Of a DNA stretch of 26,045 nucleotides, positions 165-12,069 are shown piece by piece (the first letter of the stretch is position 1; each line of letters opens with the position of its first letter). The stretch lies in the IMG/VR virus record IMGVR_UViG_3300031774_000130, positions 1-26,045 of that record, one strand, 5' to 3'. The position numbers were made by a program, and so were the translations under genes. The notes beneath the pieces were generated by a model that was not told the DNA's origin, did not search any database, and was given only the letters and a program-made list of their open reading frames with translations. Source of the stretch: a virus.

Positions 165-3100
165 ATGGGTCTTATCACTCAATCTATACCTACTCTTTTA
201 AGAGGGGTATCACAAGCTTCTGACACACAACAACAATCAGACCATGCTTGGATGCAATCTAATTTTGTTAGTAGTCCTACAGAAGGATTAAAGAAAAGAT
301 CAGGAGCACAATATGTAGCAACATTACAATCTTCAACGATGGGTAATGTACATATACAAACAATTAATAGAAATGAAAATGAAAGTTATATAGCTGTCTT
401 TGGGAACAAATCAATTAAAGTTTTTGATGCTAAAGATGGCACTGAAAAAAATATAGTTTTTGACAATACTTCTGCTGATAATTTTAATTATTTGATAAGA
501 GATGCTTTGCCAAGTCAAGAAGAATTACTTAGTGGTAGTAACTTTATAGCAGGTACATATAGTCAATCAGGAACAACAGTTACAGTAACTTCTAATAGTC
601 ATGGATTAAAAACTGGAGATGCAGCAGGAATAGATATTACTTCTGGTACTGGTGTTGATGGTGATTTTACTATTACAGTTACATCTGCAAATACTTTTAC
701 TTATACAGCCGCAACTTCATTAACTACAAATGGTATTGTTTATTTTTGGACATCAAACCCAAAAGAAGAATTTAAAACTATTAGTGTTGCTGATCATGCA
801 TTTGTTTTAAATACAAATAAAACAGTAGCAATGACTGCTGATGTCAGTACTGGTGCAAACAATGGAGCATTAGTTTTCTTTAATCAAGTTTCAGATAACA
901 CTAATTACACAATAACTGTAAATAATACAATAGCTGTACATCCTACAAGTAGTGATAATCCATTAAGCACAACTACAATAGCAACAGGAATAAAAGATAA
1001 ATTATTAGGTCAAAACGGTAAAAGTCCTGATACTGGAAGTGCTTTAACAGGTTTTACTATCTCTCAAAATGGACCTGTTTTATGGATAAAAAAAGACGAT
1101 AGTACTGATTTTGGTATTGATGCAAATGACACTCAAGGTGACTCACAGATAACATTAGTTAAAAACTCTACTCAAAACTTTACTGATCTTCCTGTTGTTG
1201 CTCCTAATAACTTTGTTGTTGAAGTCAAAGGAAGTGATAGTACAAAGTTTGATAATCATTATGTTAAGTTTGTAACAAATAATGGTGGTACTTTTGAAAA
1301 AGGTCAATGGGAAGAGACTGTAAAACCAGGGATAAGTTATAAATTTGATTACGCAACAATGCCATATGTTTTAGTTAGAAAACGTGATGGTGATTTTATT
1401 TTTTCACAAGCTGATGGAGGTCAATATTCAATCTTAGATAAAACAGTTACATATTCACTAGCAAATCATGTAGTAACTGTTACTTCTACTGCTCATGGTC
1501 TTTCAACAGGAGATCAAATAGAATACAAAGTTCTTTCAGGAAATATAGTTAATGTAAGTGCAATTAAAACAATTACAGTAACAAATGCAAATACGTTTAC
1601 TTTTCCAGAAACTTCTGGAAATTTCAGCGTAAACCAGTCTCTTTCTTATGGATTAGCAAATACTGAGACTTTACCTAAATGGGGAGAAAGAACAGTTGGT
1701 GATTTAGACACTGCTCCTAATCCTTCTTTTGTAGGTCAAAAAATAAATAACATTTTCTTCTTTAGAAATAGATTAGGTGTTCTTTCTGATGATGACGTAA
1801 TTCTTTCAAGAGTTGGAGACTATTTTAACTTTTTTCCTGAAACAGTAACTACAGTTTTAGATAGTGATCCTATTGATATAGCAGCTTCTCATACAAAAAT
1901 ATCTATATTAAAACATGCAATAACAATGGGAGAAGAATTAATACTTTTTTCAGAAAAAGCACAATTTACATTAAAAGCATCTGATGATACTTTGACACCT
2001 AAGACAGCATATATAGTTGTATCTACAGAGTTTGATAGTAATACAAAAGCTAATCCTGTTAGTTCAGGTAATAGCATTTATTTTTTAACACAAAAAGGTG
2101 AATTTTCAGGAATAAGAGAATATATAAAACAACCAGGAGTTGAAATAAAAGATGCAAGTGACATAACAATACATATACCTGCATATATACCTAGTAGTGT
2201 TTTCAAAATGACTACATCTAGCAGTGAAAATCTTCTTGCATTATTACCTCAAGATTCAAATGACATTTATATAAACCGTTGGCTATATGGTGAAGACTTT
2301 AATAAGGTTTTAAATTCTTGGTTTGCGCTAAATTTTTATACGGATTACAATATTCTTAATATAGACTTTATTGGGTCTGATTTATTTCTTGTTGTAGAAA
2401 GTGCTACTGAAACAGTTTTATTAAAATTACCATTTAAATCTAAACATGTAGAACCTTATGCACCAGGAGGAGAAGATAATAGTTGTGAATTTCATTTAGA
2501 TTTTAAAGTAACAGAAGCAACTACAGGTGTTTCTATTACTTATGACAGTAATACTAAACTTAGTACTTTTACTTTCCCTTATAAGTTATATGGAACACCT
2601 AAAATTGTAGGAAGATTTTTAGATAGGATATTCCTTGGTGGTACAGATGAAACAAGCACTTATGTAGATAGTAAAGGTAATACAAAGACACTTGACGTAG
2701 GTGAAACAATTGAAACTTCTACTATTGCTTTCAACGATAAAGGAACTACTTCAGTAGTAACAGCAACAGGTGACTATAGAAATTCAAAAGTAATCATGGG
2801 ATATGAATTTAGTTCAATGTATGTTTTTAGTACACAGAAATTAATAGATCAAAAAACTAATGCTCCAATATTAGGAGGTAGATTTCAACTACTTAATTTT
2901 TATTTAAAGTATGAAAGGACTGCATTCTTTGAAACAAGTGTTTCGTCTCCTAATGGTGGGTATAGCCGTTATAAATTTACTCCAAACCTTTTAGGTGTAA
3001 GGCATTCAACAGGTTCAACAGGTTCAGCAACTCAACCATTAAGTAAATTAAGAACACAAAAAGGAGTTTTTAAATTTCCTGTAATGGCTAAAGCAGATAT

Positions 3101-3197
3101 GACTAGTATTGAAATTTCTAACCGTTCTTTTTTACCAGCACAGTTTCTTAGTGCAGAATATGAAGCAATGTACCATTCAAGATCTAGAAGAATTTAA
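165..3197 (+). CDS. Tail tubular protein B / tail nozzle (T7 gp12-like) with two inserted beta repeats
   Basis: The 1010-residue product has the N-terminal signature of the T7 gp12 family: SIPTLLRGVSQ, then a conserved stretch with DHAWMQSNF, SSPTEGLKKRSG. In T7, gp12 forms the nozzle at the tail tip through which DNA leaves. T7 gp12 is 794 residues, so about 200 are extra. Much of the excess sits in two related inserts, residues about 133-194 and 426-500, each with a VTVTS..HGL.TGD core followed by a TITVT.ANTFT strand. The pattern resembles repeats that phage annotations call FCCH-like. Middle segments such as IFFFRNRLGVLSDDDVILSRVG and ITMGEELILFSEKAQFTL look like the conserved nozzle core. 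The ATG lies two bases after the upstream stop, and the TAA overlaps the next ATG (TAATG). Confidence 0.93.
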   Translation: MGLITQSIPTLLRGVSQASDTQQQSDHAWMQSNFVSSPTEGLKKRSGAQYVATLQSSTMGNVHIQTINRNENESYIAVFGNKSIKVFDAKDGTEKNIVFDNTSADNFNYLIRDALPSQEELLSGSNFIAGTYSQSGTTVTVTSNSHGLKTGDAAGIDITSGTGVDGDFTITVTSANTFTYTAATSLTTNGIVYFWTSNPKEEFKTISVADHAFVLNTNKTVAMTADVSTGANNGALVFFNQVSDNTNYTITVNNTIAVHPTSSDNPLSTTTIATGIKDKLLGQNGKSPDTGSALTGFTISQNGPVLWIKKDDSTDFGIDANDTQGDSQITLVKNSTQNFTDLPVVAPNNFVVEVKGSDSTKFDNHYVKFVTNNGGTFEKGQWEETVKPGISYKFDYATMPYVLVRKRDGDFIFSQADGGQYSILDKTVTYSLANHVVTVTSTAHGLSTGDQIEYKVLSGNIVNVSAIKTITVTNANTFTFPETSGNFSVNQSLSYGLANTETLPKWGERTVGDLDTAPNPSFVGQKINNIFFFRNRLGVLSDDDVILSRVGDYFNFFPETVTTVLDSDPIDIAASHTKISILKHAITMGEELILFSEKAQFTLKASDDTLTPKTAYIVVSTEFDSNTKANPVSSGNSIYFLTQKGEFSGIREYIKQPGVEIKDASDITIHIPAYIPSSVFKMTTSSSENLLALLPQDSNDIYINRWLYGEDFNKVLNSWFALNFYTDYNILNIDFIGSDLFLVVESATETVLLKLPFKSKHVEPYAPGGEDNSCEFHLDFKVTEATTGVSITYDSNTKLSTFTFPYKLYGTPKIVGRFLDRIFLGGTDETSTYVDSKGNTKTLDVGETIETSTIAFNDKGTTSVVTATGDYRNSKVIMGYEFSSMYVFSTQKLIDQKTNAPILGGRFQLLNFYLKYERTAFFETSVSSPNGGYSRYKFTPNLLGVRHSTGSTGSATQPLSKLRTQKGVFKFPVMAKADMTSIEISNRSFLPAQFLSAEYEAMYHSRSRRI

Positions 3198-3649
3198 TGG
3201 CATATCTAAGAAAATCTAATTTATCTGACCTTACTTACGTCTGTAACCATTTAAGAATTTTAGATAAAATAGAAGCTTGGTATCAAACAGGTCAACAACC
3301 AGAAGAAGCACTAAGGCTTACTTATTTATTTACAGAAAAGAATTTAGCTATTGCTGGTGATGAAGATCAAGCAATAGGTTTATGTGGTGTATGCAGCGAT
3401 GGAACTATATGGATGGTTGGTACAGATGAACTAACAAGTAAAAGAAGTTATAGGGTTGACCTAATTAAAAAAGGAAGGGAATGGGTAGACAGTCTATTGA
3501 AAACTTATAACGTCTTATATAATTATGTATATGCGGAGAATACTTCTGCTATCAAATGGTTAAAGGCTTTAGGGTTTACGTTTATTAAGTTACACCCTGA
3601 ATACGGCCACCTAAAAAAACCGTTCTATGAGTTTGTGAGGATCGTCTAA
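3197..3649 (+). CDS. T7 gp13-like virion assembly protein with GNAT-like fold
   Basis: The 150-residue product resembles T7 gp13 (138 residues), which is needed for assembly of the internal virion proteins. The C-terminal half gives the best match: an LLKTYNVLYNYVYAENTSAIKWLK segment aligns by eye with T7 gp13 MLEKYDTLWNYVWVGNTSHIRFLK, followed by a GF/GA turn and a closing acidic-basic strand. The spacing (helix, strand, N-T-S, helix, G-F) is that of the acetyl-CoA-binding end of GNAT acetyltransferases. Many such phage proteins are therefore labelled acetyltransferases, although no reaction is established. The start overlaps the gp12 stop by one base and the gene ends directly before gene 14, so translation is probably coupled. 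Confidence 0.8.
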   Translation: MAYLRKSNLSDLTYVCNHLRILDKIEAWYQTGQQPEEALRLTYLFTEKNLAIAGDEDQAIGLCGVCSDGTIWMVGTDELTSKRSYRVDLIKKGREWVDSLLKTYNVLYNYVYAENTSAIKWLKALGFTFIKLHPEYGHLKKPFYEFVRIV

Positions 3650-4306
3650 ATGTGTTTTCTTACAGCCCTTACCGCTCTTGGTGCTGGTGCTGGTGCTACT
3701 ACTGCTACTGCTGCTACTACTGCTGGTGGAGGAGGTTTATTTGGAACAAGTTTTTTAAGTGGTTTAGGTTTAGGTACAGAAGTTACTAATGCTCTTGTTG
3801 CAGATCTGGTTTTTACTGGAACAAAAAATGTTGTAGATACAAGAAGGTTAAATGCACAAGCTAAGTTTGAAGCAACACAAGCAGCAAAAGAAGCAGAAGC
3901 TGCTGACTCTGCTTTAGCTATAGAGCAAGAAGGACTTGCAGCTAGACTTAAAGAAGAAAGAAAAGCAAACGCACAAGAACAATTAGCATTAGCTAAGAGA
4001 GGAGCACAAGCAGCAGGAGCAATAAGAGCTAGTGAAAGAGCAGGATTAACAATTGATATGTTGCTAGGTGATGTAGAAAGACAAACAGGTGAAGCTACCA
4101 ATTTATTAGATCAAACATTAGCTTCAACAGTTCAACAATATAGAAGGAATACTTTAGGCTTAGACGCTAAACGAAAAAACAGACGTAACATAGCTGAAAG
4201 TAAACGTAACCAAGCACTAGGAAAGACAAGAGGAAATTTAGATATTGCTCTAGGTACACTTAGCAGTGGCCTTTCTAGTTACACCAGCCTTTTAGGTCAA
4301 GCTTAA
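3650..4306 (+). CDS. Internal virion protein B (T7 gp14-like)
   Basis: The 218-residue product begins with a small-residue, hydrophobic stretch rich in Ala, Gly and Thr (residues 1-45), which could insert into a membrane. A long Ala/Glu/Lys/Gln-rich helical region follows (about 60-140, coiled-coil character), and the C-terminus is basic with Gly and Ser. T7 gp14 is 196 residues; it is ejected first and forms a pore in the outer membrane as part of the gp14-gp15-gp16 ejectosome. Length, composition and position between the gp13-like and gp15-like genes all fit. Sequence identity to T7 is not evident by eye, so the call relies on architecture and synteny. The ATG follows the previous stop directly and the TAA shares a base with the next ATG. 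Confidence 0.82.
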   Translation: MCFLTALTALGAGAGATTATAATTAGGGGLFGTSFLSGLGLGTEVTNALVADLVFTGTKNVVDTRRLNAQAKFEATQAAKEAEAADSALAIEQEGLAARLKEERKANAQEQLALAKRGAQAAGAIRASERAGLTIDMLLGDVERQTGEATNLLDQTLASTVQQYRRNTLGLDAKRKNRRNIAESKRNQALGKTRGNLDIALGTLSSGLSSYTSLLGQA

Positions 4307-6558
4307 TGACTAACAGTTTTCGCCCACAAGCAGCACCAGTAGATACATTTGTACAACCTGTTAGTGTTGCACCTCCTAGTGACTTAGATGTTTTAGCAAG
4401 AGCTTTAAAAGCTGTTAATCCTGGTATTGAAGCTTTCCTTGATAACAAGATGGATGAAGCAATTGAAGCAGAAAAAGCAGAAGGGATGGAATTAGCTATA
4501 GAAGATTCTTTCAGTGATTTTAAAAATGTTGTTAGATCTGTTGGGAAAAAAGATGGTGAAGCTGCTGCTACACAATTAATAGGTGGAAGTATTTTTGCTC
4601 AAAAAGCTTATGAAAAACAAAAAGTTGAGATATTAGGTAATAACGTTCTTAATAAATTTAGTAATAGTTATGAAACAACATTAATTAATGATAGACCTTT
4701 AAGCTCATATACTTTTGAATCTCCAGAATTTCAAGGTTGGTTAGAAGAACAACGAAATGAATTTGTCAATCAATTAGGTGATATTAATCCTACCTATGTT
4801 AATAAATATTTTTTACCAAAATTAGCAGCAGCTACAGGACAAATCACAAGTTATCAAATTAAACAACATAAATTATATAATGTTGAACAAATTAAAAAAT
4901 TAACTGTTCCTACAGTTGAATCACTTGTTTTAAATATTGATGATGGGGCAAAGATAACAGAAATAATTAAACAGTTTGAAATTGACATGAATAATGCAGG
5001 AATATTTGGACAGCAGAGAACAGATCAACAAAATTTAATTATTGAAACAATAGCTGATTTTGCTGAAGAAGCAGGAATGAATGGTGACTTGTCAGATGCT
5101 GTAAAAATATTAGATTTAGCAAAGCTATTTCCTTCTGGACCCGATGGTAAATTATCTCTTGAAGATAATCCAACTTTTCTAGATGAAAAAAATAAAGTTA
5201 TAAAAGTCATTAAAAATAATGACTATAACGATGTGATAAGGAAAGAAAAATTAGAAGACATAGAAAAAACAAATGAATTAGAAAAAACACTAAAAGATAT
5301 TAATGAAATAAATAAACAGATAAACAACACTGAAGACGAAGCTGAGAAAAAAGTTTTACAAAAAAAATCACAAACACTTCTAGAAAATTACAAAGCAAAA
5401 TATCCAGAAATGACTCCAAGACTTAATACAATATTGTCTAATATAGATCAAAATATGGCATTAGATTATGGAGAAATTTTAATAAAAATTAGAGGTGGTG
5501 GTTATGATTCCAAGCAACAAGCATTAGATGCTGCTTATGCATTCTATGCTCAAGATCCAAAAAGGAATCAACCACAGTTTGATACATTAATGAGGGCTAT
5601 AAACGATGTTGAAACTGGTAGATATACATATGCAGGGCAATTACTTGGAACACTTAAAACTCAGCTTAAGAATGAACTATCTAATATCAAAGGAGCTATA
5701 TGGGCTGATTCTGGTGATTTAAGAGGCTTTACCGCTAGTGAACTTAACAGATTAGACATTGAGGCTAATGATCTTTTCTTTAATTGGCTAGATTCTTTTA
5801 TTAAAGAGAAAGGAAGAGAGCCTTCTCAAATGGAACAAAGAAATTGGTTTAACGACAACGTTAGAGATGTGTATTTAGAAGAAGCAAAGAAATTCAAGCC
5901 ACCAAAACCATCAGGAGCAAGCAACGTAAATTCATCACAAAATAACAATGATCAAGATTTTGATCCAAATAAAAACAATCAAGATTTAGAAGGTGATTTA
6001 AGTTCCAATCCAGTAGTTAACACACTTAATCAAGTTGCTAATGCTCTTACAGGTACGAGACCAGCAGCAGCTGGAACAATAGAAGAAGCACAAGAACAAG
6101 GACAATTAAAACCAGTAAGTAAACAACAATCATTACGTGATGGTGCTAATGAATTAGGAGTCAAGCCAGAAGATTTAGCAGCTATTATTTCTTATGAAAC
6201 TATTGGTAGTTTTGATCCGCAAATAGTAGGAACAGATAAAAATACAGGTGATACGTATCAAGGGTTAATTCAATTTGGTCCTTGGGAAAGAGAAAACTAC
6301 AACATTACTACTGAGATGTCTTTTCAAGATCAAGTTAAAGCTGTTGTTCAATTTCTAAAAGATCGTGGAGTTAAACCTGGTCATGGTCCAAAAGAAATAT
6401 ACGCTGCTGTATTTACTGGTCATGTAGGAAATATTGAAAATGGTGGATTAGATTGGGTAGATGCTAATGGTACTACCGTTAACAAAGCCCTAAAAGATCT
6501 ACTACCTGGTGGTGGTCATTACGAAAAAGCTGTTCAGTTCCTTCAACAAAAAAGTTAA
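4306..6558 (+). CDS. Internal virion protein C (T7 gp15-like) with C-terminal lysozyme-like domain
   Basis: The 750-residue product matches T7 gp15 in length (747) and position. Residues 1-600 are mainly helical, with a strongly charged Lys/Glu/Asn/Gln-rich coiled-coil region near 300-365 and a low-complexity Asn/Gln/Asp linker near 540-570. Residues about 610-750 form a separate domain resembling soluble lytic transglycosylases: LAAIISYET with candidate catalytic Glu631, then TYQGLIQFGPWE (Gln652-Glu661), where SLT enzymes have their G-L-x-Q motif, and a closing helix. In T7 the transglycosylase domain is the N-terminus of gp16, so here it occupies the same genomic spot but is joined to the other protein. 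It would cut peptidoglycan locally during DNA entry. Activity is inferred. Confidence 0.85.
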   Translation: MTNSFRPQAAPVDTFVQPVSVAPPSDLDVLARALKAVNPGIEAFLDNKMDEAIEAEKAEGMELAIEDSFSDFKNVVRSVGKKDGEAAATQLIGGSIFAQKAYEKQKVEILGNNVLNKFSNSYETTLINDRPLSSYTFESPEFQGWLEEQRNEFVNQLGDINPTYVNKYFLPKLAAATGQITSYQIKQHKLYNVEQIKKLTVPTVESLVLNIDDGAKITEIIKQFEIDMNNAGIFGQQRTDQQNLIIETIADFAEEAGMNGDLSDAVKILDLAKLFPSGPDGKLSLEDNPTFLDEKNKVIKVIKNNDYNDVIRKEKLEDIEKTNELEKTLKDINEINKQINNTEDEAEKKVLQKKSQTLLENYKAKYPEMTPRLNTILSNIDQNMALDYGEILIKIRGGGYDSKQQALDAAYAFYAQDPKRNQPQFDTLMRAINDVETGRYTYAGQLLGTLKTQLKNELSNIKGAIWADSGDLRGFTASELNRLDIEANDLFFNWLDSFIKEKGREPSQMEQRNWFNDNVRDVYLEEAKKFKPPKPSGASNVNSSQNNNDQDFDPNKNNQDLEGDLSSNPVVNTLNQVANALTGTRPAAAGTIEEAQEQGQLKPVSKQQSLRDGANELGVKPEDLAAIISYETIGSFDPQIVGTDKNTGDTYQGLIQFGPWERENYNITTEMSFQDQVKAVVQFLKDRGVKPGHGPKEIYAAVFTGHVGNIENGGLDWVDANGTTVNKALKDLLPGGGHYEKAVQFLQQKS

Positions 6559-6561
6559 ATC

Positions 6562-9500
6562 ATGACAAACAAAAATTCAGAAACTCCTTTTGAGAATATT
6601 CACTCAAGGATAGTAGATTTTGCTGACAATACTTTTTTAGGAGACAAACGAACTTTAGAAGAAATAAGAAAAGATAGACAGCAAATTATTGATGAAGCAA
6701 AAAGAAAACAGGAAGAAGCTACAGAAGAGTTGAAGAAAACAACAACTAGTAAAGTTCTTAGAGGTGCTATTAGTGGTCCTATAAAAGCTGTTAATGAAAC
6801 AGTTGAATTTGCTGATGATATATATGATCACTTTGCAGGTAATCCTTATGACAATAACGATTTAATTGATTTAAAAGAAATTGGTCTTGAAGTTGAAGGA
6901 GATAAAGAAGACTGGACATACACAATGCCACAAGCAGTATCACAATTTTTAATTCCTATGGGATTAGTAAGTGGTACTACTAGAAAGGTAATAACAAATC
7001 CTTGGGTTAGAGGAGCTGTTGCTGGAGCTGTTGCTGACTTTGTTGTTCAAGATCCTTATGAAGAAAACTTGTTCAATATGCTGGATAATCATCCAACATT
7101 AGCCAATCCAATAACAGATTTATTAAAAGCAAAAACAGAAGAGGAAATAGGAGTAGCAGAAGCAAGATTAAGACAAGCAGCTGGTGGAATGGTTATTGGT
7201 GAAACTCTTACAGGATTAATTAGAGGAGCAGGTAAAGGATTTACAAAACTTTCAAAGGAAACACAAAAAAGGATTTTAACAAGATTAACTAATGATCAAA
7301 ATACCAAGCTTGTTTATGCAGCAAACGATGATATTGACAAGCTTGGTGATGAAATAATTCCTAATGTTCCTTTAACTCAAAGGCAAATACGAGATCGTTT
7401 AGCAGACTTTGATATTGAACAAGCAACGATTGCTAAAAAGCTAAGTCAGATTGGTCCAAGCATTGAAGATGCAAGAAAACTTGGAAAACAAGAAGAATTT
7501 AGAGAACTTGCACAAAGAAATTTTGATATAGGTAATGAAAGAACTTTATTAAAGAAACAACAAGCCACAGCACCAACTGGAAAGATATCTGAACGGTTAA
7601 GAGAAAATTTAAAGAACGTAGCTCAATCAGATGCTAGAGCTTTAAAAGAAACAGATGAAGTTCTTCAAGATGCTACTAAAGCAACAGGAAGACAAAAGAT
7701 CTTACCTGGTACTGCTCATCCAACTATCCCTGGAAAAGTTAGAGGATATGACGGTAGATGGGTAACTAAAAAACACTTTGAGCAAGTTACTGAATCAATA
7801 AAAGGTGCTAATGAAATTAGAGCACAATTTGATCAGCCAGTAAGGGAAACAGTAATTCCTGATTCTCCAAGGATAGGTACAGAGATTCCAAGAGGTGAAA
7901 CAGCACAATCTGGTGCAGTCTTTATTGAAAGAGTAGATAAAGGTACAGGTCAAACAGGTCCAATAGCAAAAGCTTTTAATCTTCCTAGATCTTATGATTT
8001 AGCTGTTCTTGAATTACAAGAATTAAACGCTACACAGTTAGCAGAATTAGGTATTAAAAAAGCTGATATTGCAAAGCTAACTCCAAGACAAACTATTAAT
8101 CTTTTAAAGAAAAACTTTGATAACGTCCGTAAAGACTTACTTCCTGGTGAATACAGGATGGAAGGTTATTCAGAATCAAGACGTAAGTTATATAAGAAAT
8201 GGTTTAAAGATGATTCTGATGTTATTTGGGTAGATAGACAAACAGGAAAAGCATCAACAATAGATGATGAGATGTCTATACCGTATTTAACAGTTAAAGA
8301 ACCAACATTTGAAGAGTGGGTGAAGAACCCTCCAGAAGAATACAAAGCATTATTTAAAGAGATTGAAGAAACAAGTAAATCAGCTAAGGAAAATATTGCT
8401 AGATCAAAACAACTTTTTAAAGAGATAAAATCAGGTCTTGATGAACAAGACAAACTCTTAAAAGAAGGAAGTCAGTATGATCAGCTGTCACCAACAGATC
8501 AAAAGAAAGTTGATCTTGAAGTGAGTCTTCGTGGTAATGCTCCACAAAAGTTAGATTTAACAACAGATACCAGAGGTAAAGGTGAGTTCTATCATGGGGC
8601 TGCTGATGAATTTGAATTAGATAGTTCTAGTCATTACGCAGAACGAGGTCTTTATGGGCAAGGATTATATACAACTGATGATCTAGTTACAGCAGGTAAA
8701 TATCAAAAGAAAAACAAAAAAATTGTTAAAGCAGATGCAAAAGAAACTATTTATAAAATCACAGAAAAACAACCAGTTAAATTTTATGATTTAGATCAAT
8801 CAACACCAGCTAATTTAATTGAAGAATTAGAAAAAATTTCAAGTCAAAATGAATATTATGATGAATTAATAGGAAGAACTTTAGATGACTTAAATATTGG
8901 TTCATGGAATAAATCAATAAATAAAAATCCATCTTTAAGTAAAATTTTTGATGAATTAAAAGCTCAAAATAGATCTAATGAAATAATGCCTATGGATAGT
9001 TTAGATAATATTATTTCAGATGTTGAAAGTAAATTAAGAGATCAAGGTTTTGGTGGTTTTACTCATCAAGGAGGAAAGAAAGCAGGTAAAGGTAAACGTC
9101 TTCATCAAGTAAAAATCTATTGGGATCCTCAAGATCAACTAAACGTAAACAAAGTAGATGTAGGTGGTGGTGGTGGAGCAGTTCCTCCTAGAAAACCTCC
9201 TTCTGGTTCATCAGGTGCTGATGTTCCTCCTGTAGATCCAACTGATCCAAAAGTTCAAACTACCTTTAACCCTAAATTTGTTGTAAACAATCTAATTCTT
9301 GAAGAAGCTGAAAAAATAAAAATTGCTGATGCTTCTGGTCAATGGCCTCTCAAAAGAACTTTTAAAGATATAAGCAACAAAGCTAACAAACAAACAATTC
9401 AAAAAACAATAGCTACTGCAACTGAATTTAATAAAGAATACGGAAGAACAGGTGATAAAGATTTAGCTGCAACAGTAGTAGCAATGAACAGACTATTAAA

Positions 9501-12069
9501 TAAAAATGCTCAAGATTTACATAGATTGAGTACATCAATGAGTCAATCTTTAGATGCTAAGAACATAGAAAGTTTTAAATCTATTAGAACAGATTTTGAA
9601 AATCAAATTGCCATAATAGATGGTCTAATTACTCTTAATAAACCACTAAAAACAATACCTGCTCAAACATTAGCTGCTAATAAAATTGGTGGTGGTGTTG
9701 CTGATACAGCCGCAACTATTGATGATTTAGCTAAAAGGACACCAACAGATAAAGCTGTTAATCAAGCTTCTGATTTAAGAGGTGTTGTTGATGAAGGTAG
9801 TGAAGAGACAATAAAAGACGAAACATTCAAAGAACTTCTTGACCTTGTTGAGAAAGGTGATAAAGCAGCAATAAAACAAGTAAGAGTGCTTACAAATAGA
9901 CTTCAAGCTCTTAGTGGTAATCCTGAAGGACTAAGAAGAATGATGGCAGAAGGAATTCCTCTTAAAGCTCTACGAGTATTTAATGAAGTATGGATTAATA
10001 ATATTCTTTCTGGTCCAGCAACTCATGCCGTTAATATTCTTTCTACTGGAATGAATACTATTGCAAGACCATTTGATCAAATAATAGGTGCAGGAAGTAT
10101 TCATTTTAGAAAAGATATAAATATTGGGTTTAAAGAATCTTTATTTAAAAATAGAGGTAATTTAACATTTAATCCTCATTTTGATACAAAAAAAGCAGTA
10201 AGAGGTGGCAAGGAATTGATTTATTTAATGAGTTCTATTGGTGACTCATTAAAAATGGCTAGAGCTGCTTTTCGTATTGAAGATAATATTACTGATCCAG
10301 GCAGAATGATTCAAGACGGAGGATCTAGATTTGCTATTCGACATGATGGAGAAGGAGCAATTGCTGGTTTAGTTAATGGTTTCGGATCAACTGTTAGGTT
10401 GTCAGGTAGGCTTTTACTTTCTGAAGATGAGTTCTTTAAAAGTTTAAATTTCAGAGCCTATACAAAAGCTAGTGCATGGGAAAACGGTGTAAATAAAGGA
10501 CTTAAAGGTAAAGAATTAACAGATTATATCCAAGATCAATTTGATAGAACTATTGCAATTGTTAACACAGGAAGTATGAAAAATACTAAGAGTATTGAGA
10601 TAGCTGAGTTATACGAGAAAGCAAAACAATATGCAGCTGACGTTACATTTACTTCTGACCTGCAACCTGGATCATTAGGAAGCAAAGTACAAAACTTAGC
10701 CAGTCATCCAGTAGCTAGACAATTCCTTCCATTTGTAAGGACACCAATGAATATTTTTAAAGCTCAAGTAAGAAGAACACCTGGTTTTAATTTAATGCTT
10801 CAGGAATATAGACAAGCTTTAAAAAGTTCTGATACTGCTGTTGCTGCAAGAGCTAGAGGAGAAATGATTACAGGTGGAGCACTTTGGAGTGTAGGAGCAT
10901 TAGTTGCTGGAAATATTGATGATGATTTTGCTGAATTTACATTTACAGGAGGTGGACCAAAAGACTTTGATCTTCTTAACCAACGAAAAGAAACAGGTTG
11001 GCAACCTTATAGTTTCAGAACCATTTTAAAAGACAAAGATGGAAACATTAAAATGGGTAAAGATGGAAAGCCTAGATATAAATATGTAAGTTTTAAACGT
11101 TTTGAACCGTGGGCTTCTCACTTAATGCTAATGGCTGACTTTGCAAGCATTATTGGTCAGTTACATCCACAAGACAGGATGGATGTAGGAACAGCTATTT
11201 CTGCTGCTATAGGAAGAAACCTTACAGATAAAACTTATCTTCAAGGAATTACTGAACTTGGTTATCTGCTTAGTGATTTTGATTATGGTCAGAAATGGTT
11301 AGCAAGAAGAGCTGCTCAAACAATTGTGCCGTTCAGTGGTTTAGCTAAAACTGTATCAAAAACATTAGATCCTAGAATTAAAGATACAAGACCCAAGGCA
11401 GGAGATGAAGAAATGCTTATTATTAGACAGTTCTTTAATGAATTAAAAGCAACAGTTCATGGTTATGGAGATTTAAAACCTCTTCGTAATTTTATAACTG
11501 GTTCAATTATTGATTATCCACCTGGATTTGGACCAGATATTTTTAACTTTATGAATCCTATTAGGGAAACTAAAAGTCGTAACCATGCAGTTTTAACAGT
11601 TCTTGATGATGTAGGAATTATTATTCCAAAGCCATCAGACACAATCAAACCTATTCAAACAGGAGGAATACAAATAGAAGGTGGGATTAAATTAGATCAC
11701 AATCAATATGCAGATTATCTTAAAGAAATTGCATCTATTAAAGGTTCAGATGGCATAACACTTGTTAGAGCTTTATACAACAAAATGCAAAACCCACAAA
11801 TCAAAGTTCTTATAAGCACTGCCAAGGGAGAAGACATAACAGGTGAAAACCAAGATACATCTGTTGAATTAAGAGAAATTGCTAGAGATACATTAGATAG
11901 TGAATTTAAAGAAATTATTGCTCGCTATAAAGATGCTGCTAGAAAATCTTTCTTAAGGAAAAACCCTGATATTTTAGTAGACTATGAAAAATTAAGAGCT
12001 GAACTCAACAACAAATTTCAACAGTCATCTCTTGAAAAACTTGAAAAGCTTACAGGTGTCTCTAATTAA
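6562..12069 (+). CDS. Internal virion protein D (T7 gp16-like ejection protein), giant form with embedded ADP-ribosyltransferase-like domain
   Basis: The 1835-residue product is in the gene 16 position; T7 gp16 is 1318 residues and lines the ejection channel through the inner membrane. The N-terminus (1-90) is charged and helical, with no lysozyme motif, because that domain is on the preceding protein. Residues about 672-866 look like an ADP-ribosyltransferase fold of the polyvalent-protein type: EFYHGA (His678), YGQGLYTTDD (Tyr703), a distal GFGGFTHQ segment and a VKIYWDP strand. A Gly/Pro linker follows (about 868-890). The C-terminal half has NNILSGPATHAVNILS (near 1150) and QFLPFVRTPMNIF (near 1392), motifs seen in large phage ejection proteins. 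The ATG is four bases past the previous stop. The overall role is well supported; the enzymatic function is not. Confidence 0.88.
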   Translation: MTNKNSETPFENIHSRIVDFADNTFLGDKRTLEEIRKDRQQIIDEAKRKQEEATEELKKTTTSKVLRGAISGPIKAVNETVEFADDIYDHFAGNPYDNNDLIDLKEIGLEVEGDKEDWTYTMPQAVSQFLIPMGLVSGTTRKVITNPWVRGAVAGAVADFVVQDPYEENLFNMLDNHPTLANPITDLLKAKTEEEIGVAEARLRQAAGGMVIGETLTGLIRGAGKGFTKLSKETQKRILTRLTNDQNTKLVYAANDDIDKLGDEIIPNVPLTQRQIRDRLADFDIEQATIAKKLSQIGPSIEDARKLGKQEEFRELAQRNFDIGNERTLLKKQQATAPTGKISERLRENLKNVAQSDARALKETDEVLQDATKATGRQKILPGTAHPTIPGKVRGYDGRWVTKKHFEQVTESIKGANEIRAQFDQPVRETVIPDSPRIGTEIPRGETAQSGAVFIERVDKGTGQTGPIAKAFNLPRSYDLAVLELQELNATQLAELGIKKADIAKLTPRQTINLLKKNFDNVRKDLLPGEYRMEGYSESRRKLYKKWFKDDSDVIWVDRQTGKASTIDDEMSIPYLTVKEPTFEEWVKNPPEEYKALFKEIEETSKSAKENIARSKQLFKEIKSGLDEQDKLLKEGSQYDQLSPTDQKKVDLEVSLRGNAPQKLDLTTDTRGKGEFYHGAADEFELDSSSHYAERGLYGQGLYTTDDLVTAGKYQKKNKKIVKADAKETIYKITEKQPVKFYDLDQSTPANLIEELEKISSQNEYYDELIGRTLDDLNIGSWNKSINKNPSLSKIFDELKAQNRSNEIMPMDSLDNIISDVESKLRDQGFGGFTHQGGKKAGKGKRLHQVKIYWDPQDQLNVNKVDVGGGGGAVPPRKPPSGSSGADVPPVDPTDPKVQTTFNPKFVVNNLILEEAEKIKIADASGQWPLKRTFKDISNKANKQTIQKTIATATEFNKEYGRTGDKDLAATVVAMNRLLNKNAQDLHRLSTSMSQSLDAKNIESFKSIRTDFENQIAIIDGLITLNKPLKTIPAQTLAANKIGGGVADTAATIDDLAKRTPTDKAVNQASDLRGVVDEGSEETIKDETFKELLDLVEKGDKAAIKQVRVLTNRLQALSGNPEGLRRMMAEGIPLKALRVFNEVWINNILSGPATHAVNILSTGMNTIARPFDQIIGAGSIHFRKDINIGFKESLFKNRGNLTFNPHFDTKKAVRGGKELIYLMSSIGDSLKMARAAFRIEDNITDPGRMIQDGGSRFAIRHDGEGAIAGLVNGFGSTVRLSGRLLLSEDEFFKSLNFRAYTKASAWENGVNKGLKGKELTDYIQDQFDRTIAIVNTGSMKNTKSIEIAELYEKAKQYAADVTFTSDLQPGSLGSKVQNLASHPVARQFLPFVRTPMNIFKAQVRRTPGFNLMLQEYRQALKSSDTAVAARARGEMITGGALWSVGALVAGNIDDDFAEFTFTGGGPKDFDLLNQRKETGWQPYSFRTILKDKDGNIKMGKDGKPRYKYVSFKRFEPWASHLMLMADFASIIGQLHPQDRMDVGTAISAAIGRNLTDKTYLQGITELGYLLSDFDYGQKWLARRAAQTIVPFSGLAKTVSKTLDPRIKDTRPKAGDEEMLIIRQFFNELKATVHGYGDLKPLRNFITGSIIDYPPGFGPDIFNFMNPIRETKSRNHAVLTVLDDVGIIIPKPSDTIKPIQTGGIQIEGGIKLDHNQYADYLKEIASIKGSDGITLVRALYNKMQNPQIKVLISTAKGEDITGENQDTSVELREIARDTLDSEFKEIIARYKDAARKSFLRKNPDILVDYEKLRAELNNKFQQSSLEKLEKLTGVSN

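What the first reader, a model, noticed from the sequence alone, without database searches (positions are those of the whole stretch)
8575..9160. ADP-ribosyltransferase-like domain inside an ejected virion protein
Seen: residues 672-866 of the gp16-like protein contain EFYHGA (His678), about 25 residues later YGQGLYTTDD (Tyr703) followed by an A-x2-Y, and later GFGGFTHQ and VKIYWDP. Known: ART-fold domains of phage and plasmid polyvalent proteins (ART-PolyVal, described by Aravind and colleagues) show an H-G-(T/A) strand, a G-x-G-(I/L)-Y motif and a final strand carrying a Glu. Inference: because gp16 is ejected with the DNA, this phage may deliver an ADP-ribosylating activity into the cell before any phage gene is transcribed. 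The third catalytic residue is unclear: Gln849 stands near where Glu is expected, so the domain may have changed specificity or be inactive.
Basis: partly seen in the sequence, partly recalled or inferred. Interest (0 to 1): 0.78.

Follow-up and report, generated by a model that had tools for sequence, protein, structure and literature searches.

The report
Swappable ADP-ribosyltransferase cargo in gp16
A marine T7-like phage carries, inside the large protein it is expected to inject with its DNA, an enzyme-like domain related to ADP-ribosylating enzymes, and closely related phages gain, lose and swap this domain at one fixed spot, as if the injected protein were a holder for exchangeable weapons.

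Summary
All 17 aligned members match DUF3990 (Pfam's ART clan; the window's below the curated cut-off). The AlphaFold model (pLDDT 83) best matches the cyanophage A4 pre-ejectosome protein, then RES toxin. In 70 distinct homologues His678 and Tyr703 are invariant. Gln849 is not (53/70). The residue in the third catalytic position is His848, also invariant: an unusual H-Y-H signature where polyvalent-protein ARTs have H-Y-D. Homologous gp16 proteins show that the ART is a cassette at one slot between gp16's N- and C-terminal parts. Near-identical gp16s (99.6/98.3% aa flanks) have or lack it. ART alleles move between backbones (dS 0.05 in the ART against 1.2 in the backbone). The same slot can hold an HExxH metallopeptidase-like domain, and one ART-less gp16 keeps the tail of a lost ART. 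Likeliest role: an accessory effector delivered with the DNA. Activity, target and entry into the cytoplasm are inferred. Injected ARTs are known (T4 Alt, polyvalent proteins, freshwater cyanopodophages); new here are the gp16 slot, the H-Y-H family and the observed swapping.

The parts
6562..12069 (+). gp16-like ejection protein (internal virion protein D), 1835 aa
   Evidence: ORF; PHROG 6651 internal virion protein E=8.4e-48 over aa 1278-1671; follows gp12 nozzle, gp13, gp14, gp15 and precedes the T7-type tail fibre; homologous to gp16/'internal virion protein D' of Roseobacter, Pelagibacter and Synechococcus phages
6682..7326 (+). conserved N-terminal part of gp16 (aa ~41-255), followed by the slot motif LGDEI
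   Evidence: shared with relatives at up to 71% identity and weakly with isolate gp16s
7360..9261 (+). cargo slot of gp16 (aa ~267-900), between LGDEI and TTFNPKF; only 17-30 residues long in ART-less relatives with the same anchors
7582..7850 (+). module A (aa ~341-430), unknown function; 85-93% nt identical pieces in other gp16 slots
7840..8295 (+). module B (aa ~427-578), unknown function; absent in L019, where the neighbouring stretches are joined; 88-97% nt identical copies in L011 and L003
8566..9171 (+). ART-fold domain (aa ~669-870): strand 1 YHG (H678), strand 2 GxG[LF]Y (Y703), strand 5 H848-x-V-[KR]-I-Y
8593..8595 (+). His678, motif I
   Evidence: 70/70
8668..8670 (+). Tyr703, motif II
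   Evidence: 70/70
9103..9105 (+). His848, motif III position (D in most cyanophage ARTs, E in PARP1)
   Evidence: 70/70; position by alignment with PfWMP3_26/A4L_27 and PARP motif III (PMC7955679)
9160..9231 (+). Gly/Pro-rich, probably flexible linker after the ART (GGGGGAVPPRKPPSGSSGADVPP)
   Evidence: sequence
9862..11661 (+). conserved C-terminal part of gp16 (aa ~1101-1700)
165..6558 (+). gp12-like nozzle, gp13-like, gp14-like and gp15-like genes: the T7-type ejection block that sets the context
   Evidence: Pfam Phage_nozzle, Phage_T7_Gp13, T7_gp14 (just below cut-off); gp15 C-terminus matches phrog_4928

Best explanation
The domain is an ART-fold effector of the H-Y-x type carried as exchangeable cargo in gp16, the largest ejection protein of a marine T7-like phage. 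Shown here: the fold (predicted), homology to ejectosome-borne ARTs of freshwater cyanopodophages, strict conservation of His678/Tyr703/His848, purifying selection, and presence/absence plus allele swapping at one slot of gp16. Inferred: gp16 leaves the virion with the DNA, the slot lies just behind the N-terminal part and so is carried to the inner membrane or cytoplasm, and there the domain uses NAD+ to mono-ADP-ribosylate a host molecule (defence component, RNA polymerase or another early target) before phage genes are expressed. Patchy, recombining occurrence fits an arms-race role better than a part needed for ejection. Confidence by step: ART fold 0.95; optional swappable cargo 0.9; delivered with gp16 0.85; reaches the cytoplasm 0.7; catalytically active ADP-ribosyl transfer 0.65; counter-defence rather than another early role 0.5.
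For: Fold: AF2 pLDDT 83.4, pTM 0.81, ART-like strand order; top PDB hit 9k3a_B, cyanophage A4 pre-ejectosome (E=1.2e-5, TMq 0.57), then RES toxin (E 1.3e-2); ParT and PARP10 follow without significance; viral hits include proteins named ART-PolyVal, and Pf-WMP3_26. 9k3a_B is A4L_27; it and Pf-WMP3_26 show HGT...Y...DT[TV]x[VI] motifs. Profile-profile match with seven cyanophage ARTs: probability 95%, E=3e-8, local alignment ending before motif III. Invariance of H678, Y703, H848 in 70 sequences. Cassette: 40 ART+ and 52 ART- gp16s; L066/L144 flanks 99.6/98.3% aa and 97.5/96.1% nt identical; 13 changes of ART state on the gp16 C-terminal tree, 8 forced by starred branches; L001/L002 ART dS 0.047 against 1.217 in the backbone, ART dN/dS 0.06-0.32 in six related copies. 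Rival cargo in the same slot: HEL[WS]H...FAEN domain. Polyvalent kinship: L013 protein has LPD22 + ART-PolyVal + this ART. Delivery: T7 gp16 is ejected and its C-terminal part assigned to the cytoplasm (PMC8954989).
Against: No activity data. The third active-site residue is His, not among the E/D/Q of the H-Y-[EDQ] clade nor the I/L/Y of mono-ARTs listed in PMC7955679, so catalysis is not assured. Pfam matches of the window domain lie below curated cut-offs. Membrane topology of the slot is not established: hydrophobic segments are weak. No phage record in the annotated collection was found to carry this marine domain.
Confidence: 0.68

Rival explanations
1. Pseudo-ART: the fold is kept but the H-Y-H pocket binds NAD+, ADP-ribose or a nucleotide signal without transfer (for example sequestering a defence signal).
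For: Motif III is non-acidic; pseudo-ARTs with degenerate motifs exist (PMC7955679); in the freshwater ejectosome ARTs position III also drifts (D in five, R or K in two).
Against: All three positions are invariant over 70 sequences and H-Y is intact; PARPs with I, L or Y in position III are listed as mono-ARTs.
Confidence: 0.2
2. NAD-consuming or nucleic-acid-modifying ART: His848 tunes the pocket to NAD+ hydrolysis or to a nucleotide, DNA or RNA acceptor rather than a protein. (A variant of the best explanation: same fold and delivery, different chemistry.)
For: A conserved unusual third residue suggests altered specificity; a RES-domain toxin is the second structural hit, and RES toxins are known as NAD+-degrading (own knowledge).
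Against: Nothing here identifies the acceptor; RES similarity is fold-level only (TMq 0.40).
Confidence: 0.25
3. Structural insert: the domain is a spacer or assembly element of the ejection core and its ART features are ancestral baggage.
For: The related domain is seen within a pre-ejectosome protein in cyanophage A4.
Against: Near-identical gp16s exist without it, alleles swap between backbones, and the three pocket positions are invariant.
Confidence: 0.05
4. The domain acts in the periplasm rather than the cytoplasm.
For: The slot follows directly behind the N-terminal part, whose T7 counterpart (aa 1-228) is periplasmic (PMC8954989).
Against: NAD+ is mainly cytoplasmic (general knowledge), and gp16-C of T7 is assigned to the cytoplasm.
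Confidence: 0.12

Closest known systems
Large ejection protein of Saffermanviridae cyanophages (A4L_27 / PDB 9k3a_B, PfWMP3_26, PfWMP4_32, Pbo-yong3 'mono-ADP-ribosyltransferase-like protein')
   Same: ART domain in a large protein encoded between the M23-peptidase internal protein and the next tail protein; best structural hit; significant profile-profile match
   Different: In A4L_27 and PfWMP3_26 the ART lies near the C-terminus and not between gp16 N and C parts; third residue mostly Asp; not detected by the marine sequence profile alone
ART-PolyVal / Tox-ART-HYD2 clade ARTs of polyvalent proteins (Iyer et al. 2017, PMC5512222)
   Same: Predicted phage-delivered ART in a giant multidomain protein; H in strand 1, Y in strand 2; weak ART-PolyVal matches in 9/17 members; co-occurs with LPD22 and a true ART-PolyVal in L013
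   Different: Third residue His instead of Asp; DUF3990 fits better; carrier is a T7-type gp16
DUF3990 (PF13151, Pfam ART clan)
   Same: Best Pfam model for the window domain; matched by all 17 members
   Different: Window domain below the curated cut-off
Phage T4 Alt
   Same: ART carried in the virion and injected with DNA (PMC5512222, PMC9503650)
   Different: R-S-E active site, separate protein, contractile-tailed phage (not compared by sequence here)
T7 gp16
   Same: Gene position after gp12-gp15, ejection role of the family
   Different: T7 gp16 (1318 aa) is described without an effector cargo and has the transglycosylase in its N-terminus; here a hydrolase-like domain may sit in gp15

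Membership tests
ART superfamily (fold) | split beta-sheet ART fold | tested here: met
   AF2 model and Foldseek: 9k3a_B, then RES; predicted, not solved
ART superfamily, H-Y-[EDQ] clade | His in strand 1 and Tyr in strand 2 | tested here: met
   H678 and Y703 70/70
ART superfamily, H-Y-[EDQ] clade | E/D/Q at the start of strand 5 | tested here: not met
   His848 70/70 in that position. Filed as an ART-fold H-Y-x relative, not as a member of this clade as defined
ART-PolyVal (PF18760) | score above Pfam gathering threshold | tested here: not met
   not hit by the window domain; weak (best E=0.0012) in 9/17 members
ART-PolyVal / Tox-ART-HYD2 | H-Y-D active site | tested here: not met
   H-Y-H; definition from PMC5512222
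DUF3990 (PF13151) | score above Pfam gathering threshold (32.2 bits) | tested here: not met
   28.4 bits, E=1.5e-6 for the window domain
Polyvalent proteins | several effector domains in one giant virion-associated polypeptide | tested here: inconclusive
   window: ART plus two modules of unknown function; relative L013 has LPD22, ART-PolyVal and this ART
T7-like gp16 / internal virion protein D | homology and gene order gp12-gp13-gp14-gp15-gp16-tail fibre | tested here: met
T7-like gp16 | present in the virion and ejected into the cell | not testable with these tools
   known for T7 (PMC8954989), inferred here
ADP-ribosyltransferase (activity) | transfer of ADP-ribose from NAD+ | not testable with these tools
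   needs purified protein

The most novel reading that the evidence does not exclude
gp16 of marine T7-like phages is a docking site for interchangeable injected effectors, kept in flux by recombination within phage populations, and its commonest recognised cargo here is a new H-Y-H class of ART that modifies a host defence or early target before any phage gene is expressed.
Probability: 0.35. Interest if true: 0.88.

Novelty: new variant of a known kind. Interest (0 to 1): 0.72.

Why it matters
Injected effectors of podoviruses are mostly predicted from single proteins. Here natural near-identical gp16 proteins with and without the ART give a ready-made comparison, show which stretch of gp16 tolerates cargo, and suggest that marine T7-like phages change their pre-transcriptional weapons the way other phages change tail fibres. 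The invariant His in place of the acidic residue poses a clear enzymological question. The A4 structure places an ART-bearing protein inside an ejectosome, so the idea can be tested.

Tried and rejected
Gln849 as the third catalytic residue: rejected, it varies. Asp855 as the third residue: less likely, D/E in 63/70 and other residues in the rest, and it lies past the strand start. Membership in ART-PolyVal: not met. Sequence search of the PDB with the profile: only chance-level matches to helical and designed proteins. Marine profile against A4, Pf-WMP3 and RPP1 proteins by HMMER: nothing; profile-profile comparison was needed. Cellular origin: no match in genome contigs by the pattern scan (a limited test). 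Other cargo by Pfam in large relatives: only L013 informative. Structure of the HExxH cargo: model poor (pLDDT 64), fold search empty, so that assignment rests on the invariant HELxH and FAEN motifs alone. The PNAS paper on cyanophage A4 is not held. No phage record carrying the marine ART was found with four query members. A first attempt to delimit slots by regular expression missed most proteins and was redone.

Full report
OBSERVATION. The ORF 6562-12069 (+) encodes 1835 aa and sits behind nozzle (gp12), gp13-, gp14- and gp15-like genes and before a T7-type tail fibre. Its C-terminal half is homologous to internal virion protein D (gp16) of Roseobacter, Pelagibacter, Synechococcus and other phages. 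The window is a whole 26-kb IMG/VR record; its terminase is closest to that of Prochlorococcus phage P-SCSP2 (75.6%), so a marine host, perhaps a picocyanobacterium, is likely but not shown.

THE DOMAIN. A pattern scan found 20 viral loci encoding the domain, and an alignment-based scan found 82 (80 kept). The domain matches DUF3990, a family of the Pfam ART clan (PMC7955679), in all 17 aligned members, and ART-PolyVal weakly in 9; the window domain stays below the curated cut-offs. AlphaFold2 on the 17-row alignment gave pLDDT 83 and pTM 0.81 with an ART-like order of strands. Foldseek against the PDB gave one match with E<0.001: chain B of 9k3a, the cyanophage A4 pre-ejectosome (E=1.2e-5), followed by RES toxin (E about 0.01-0.04) and, without significance, ParT and PARP10. 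Against predicted viral proteins it hit several named ART-PolyVal, and Pf-WMP3_26.

LINK TO EJECTOSOMES. 9k3a_B is A4L_27, the 1717-aa 'tail protein' next to the internal M23 peptidase gene. Its sequence shows LYHGT, GSGTYF and GDTTLVINPD; Pf-WMP3_26 shows FHGT, LGTAIYL and ADTVAIYNPD. The same ART is found in other freshwater cyanopodoviruses, one already annotated as mono-ADP-ribosyltransferase-like. Profile-profile comparison of the marine set with seven of these gave probability 95%, E=3e-8; the local alignment stops just before motif III, and a global alignment places the last strands together. So an ART in a podovirus ejection protein has a structural precedent; the paper on it could not be read here.

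ACTIVE SITE. Over 70 distinct domains, H678, G679, G699, Y703, Y731, G829, G831, G832, H848, V850 and Y853 never vary. Gln849 varies. In the cyanophage ARTs the last strand reads D-T-V-A-I-Y, which lines up with H-Q-V-K-I-Y, putting His848 where those have Asp and PARP1 has Glu (alignment read by eye; PARP motif III). The polyvalent-protein ARTs are described as H-Y-D (PMC5512222). The marine family therefore has an H-Y-H signature. In the cyanophage set the position is D in five and R or K in two, so position III seems evolvable; PARPs with I, L or Y there are listed as mono-ARTs. I judge activity likely but unproven.

THE CARGO SLOT. Ten gp16 proteins from isolates or complete environmental genomes lack the domain. 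A scan with the gp16 C-terminal alignment returned 80 of 447 relatives regardless of ART. Of 92 distinct gp16 ORFs with both conserved parts, 40 have the ART and 52 do not; the ART-positive ones are over-represented because many were recruited by the ART itself. Among loci recruited by gp16 alone roughly 13 of some 65 with a complete slot carry it (my count). In the relatives that share the anchors, the ART sits at one place: after LGDE[IM] of the N-terminal part and before TTFN of the C-terminal part, where ART-less relatives have 17-30 residues. L066 and L144 are 99.6% and 98.3% identical on the two sides and differ by the ART (97.5 and 96.1% in DNA). L128 (empty), L070 (short ART) and L090 (ART with a ~90-aa insert) share about 94-95% identical flanks. 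L169 lacks the ART but keeps QIDINKVDLDALADPK, the end of the cassette, as a scar. On a quick tree of the gp16 C-terminus the ART state changes 13 times, 8 of them forced by well-supported branches.

SWAPPING. Divergence of ART and backbone disagree: L001 and L002 differ by dS 0.047 in the ART and 1.217 in the gp16 C-terminus; L066 and L071 by 0.10 and 1.03. Within six related ARTs dN/dS is 0.06-0.32, so the domain is maintained by purifying selection. The window's own slot holds three pieces: module A (aa ~341-430), module B (~427-578) and the ART; module copies at 84-97% nt identity lie in gp16s that are otherwise far more diverged, and L019 shows the arrangement without module B. The functions of A and B are unknown.

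OTHER CARGO. L170 and L172 carry in the same slot a different domain with invariant HELxH and, about 97 residues on, DE[FY]FAEN, the signature of a gluzincin-like metallopeptidase; metallopeptidases are also listed among polyvalent-protein domains (PMC5512222). L165 (empty), L170 (HExxH) and L071 (ART) form one tight group by their gp16 C-terminus. The structure prediction for this cargo failed, so this rests on motifs. A 3031-aa relative (L013) bears LPD22, a true ART-PolyVal and this ART in one chain, tying the family to polyvalent proteins.

MECHANISM. Established for T7: gp14, gp15 and gp16 leave the virion; gp16-N lies in the periplasm and gp16-C is assigned to the cytoplasm (PMC8954989). 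Inferred here: the marine gp16 does the same and carries its cargo along, and the ART acts on a host molecule before phage expression. An optional, recombining enzyme-like domain kept by purifying selection fits an accessory arms-race role. The side of the membrane is not settled.

VERDICT. It is a new variant of a known kind (phage-delivered ART), with three points I have not found described in the papers searched: the fixed cargo slot in T7-like gp16, the H-Y-H family, and gain, loss and exchange of cargo between near-identical gp16s. The literature library is partial.

Noticed in passing
window 7840-8295 (gp16 aa ~427-578) and 7582-7850 (aa ~341-430): Two further modules of unknown function in the gp16 slot, with 85-97% nt identical copies in otherwise diverged gp16s; module B is absent from close relative L019.
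   Followed up: partly
L170:4650-5714, L172:2848-3924, L193-L209: HELxH...FAEN metallopeptidase-like domain, in L170 and L172 in the same gp16 slot; structure prediction was too poor to confirm the fold.
   Followed up: partly
L013:2600-11692 (also L012, L014): 3031-aa protein with LPD22, a true ART-PolyVal and this ART; it lacks a detectable gp16 C-terminal part.
   Followed up: partly
L169, slot of the gp16 ORF starting at 2326: Scar of a lost ART: 16 residues of the cassette's end remain.
   Followed up: partly
window 4306-6558: gp15-like protein whose C-terminus (aa ~573-712) matches phrog_4928 and a baseplate-hub family; it may hold the peptidoglycan hydrolase that T7 has in gp16.
   Followed up: no
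L018, L087, L088, L090, L091, L095: ART variant with a ~90-aa insert (RLRDLA[KN]QARQFPIDNP...) between strands 2 and 3.
   Followed up: no
L022 (FR719956, protein CBX87992): The N4-like RNA polymerase protein with ART-PolyVal seems to have E, not D, where motif III falls (GLDGEIMVV); read by eye only.
   Followed up: no
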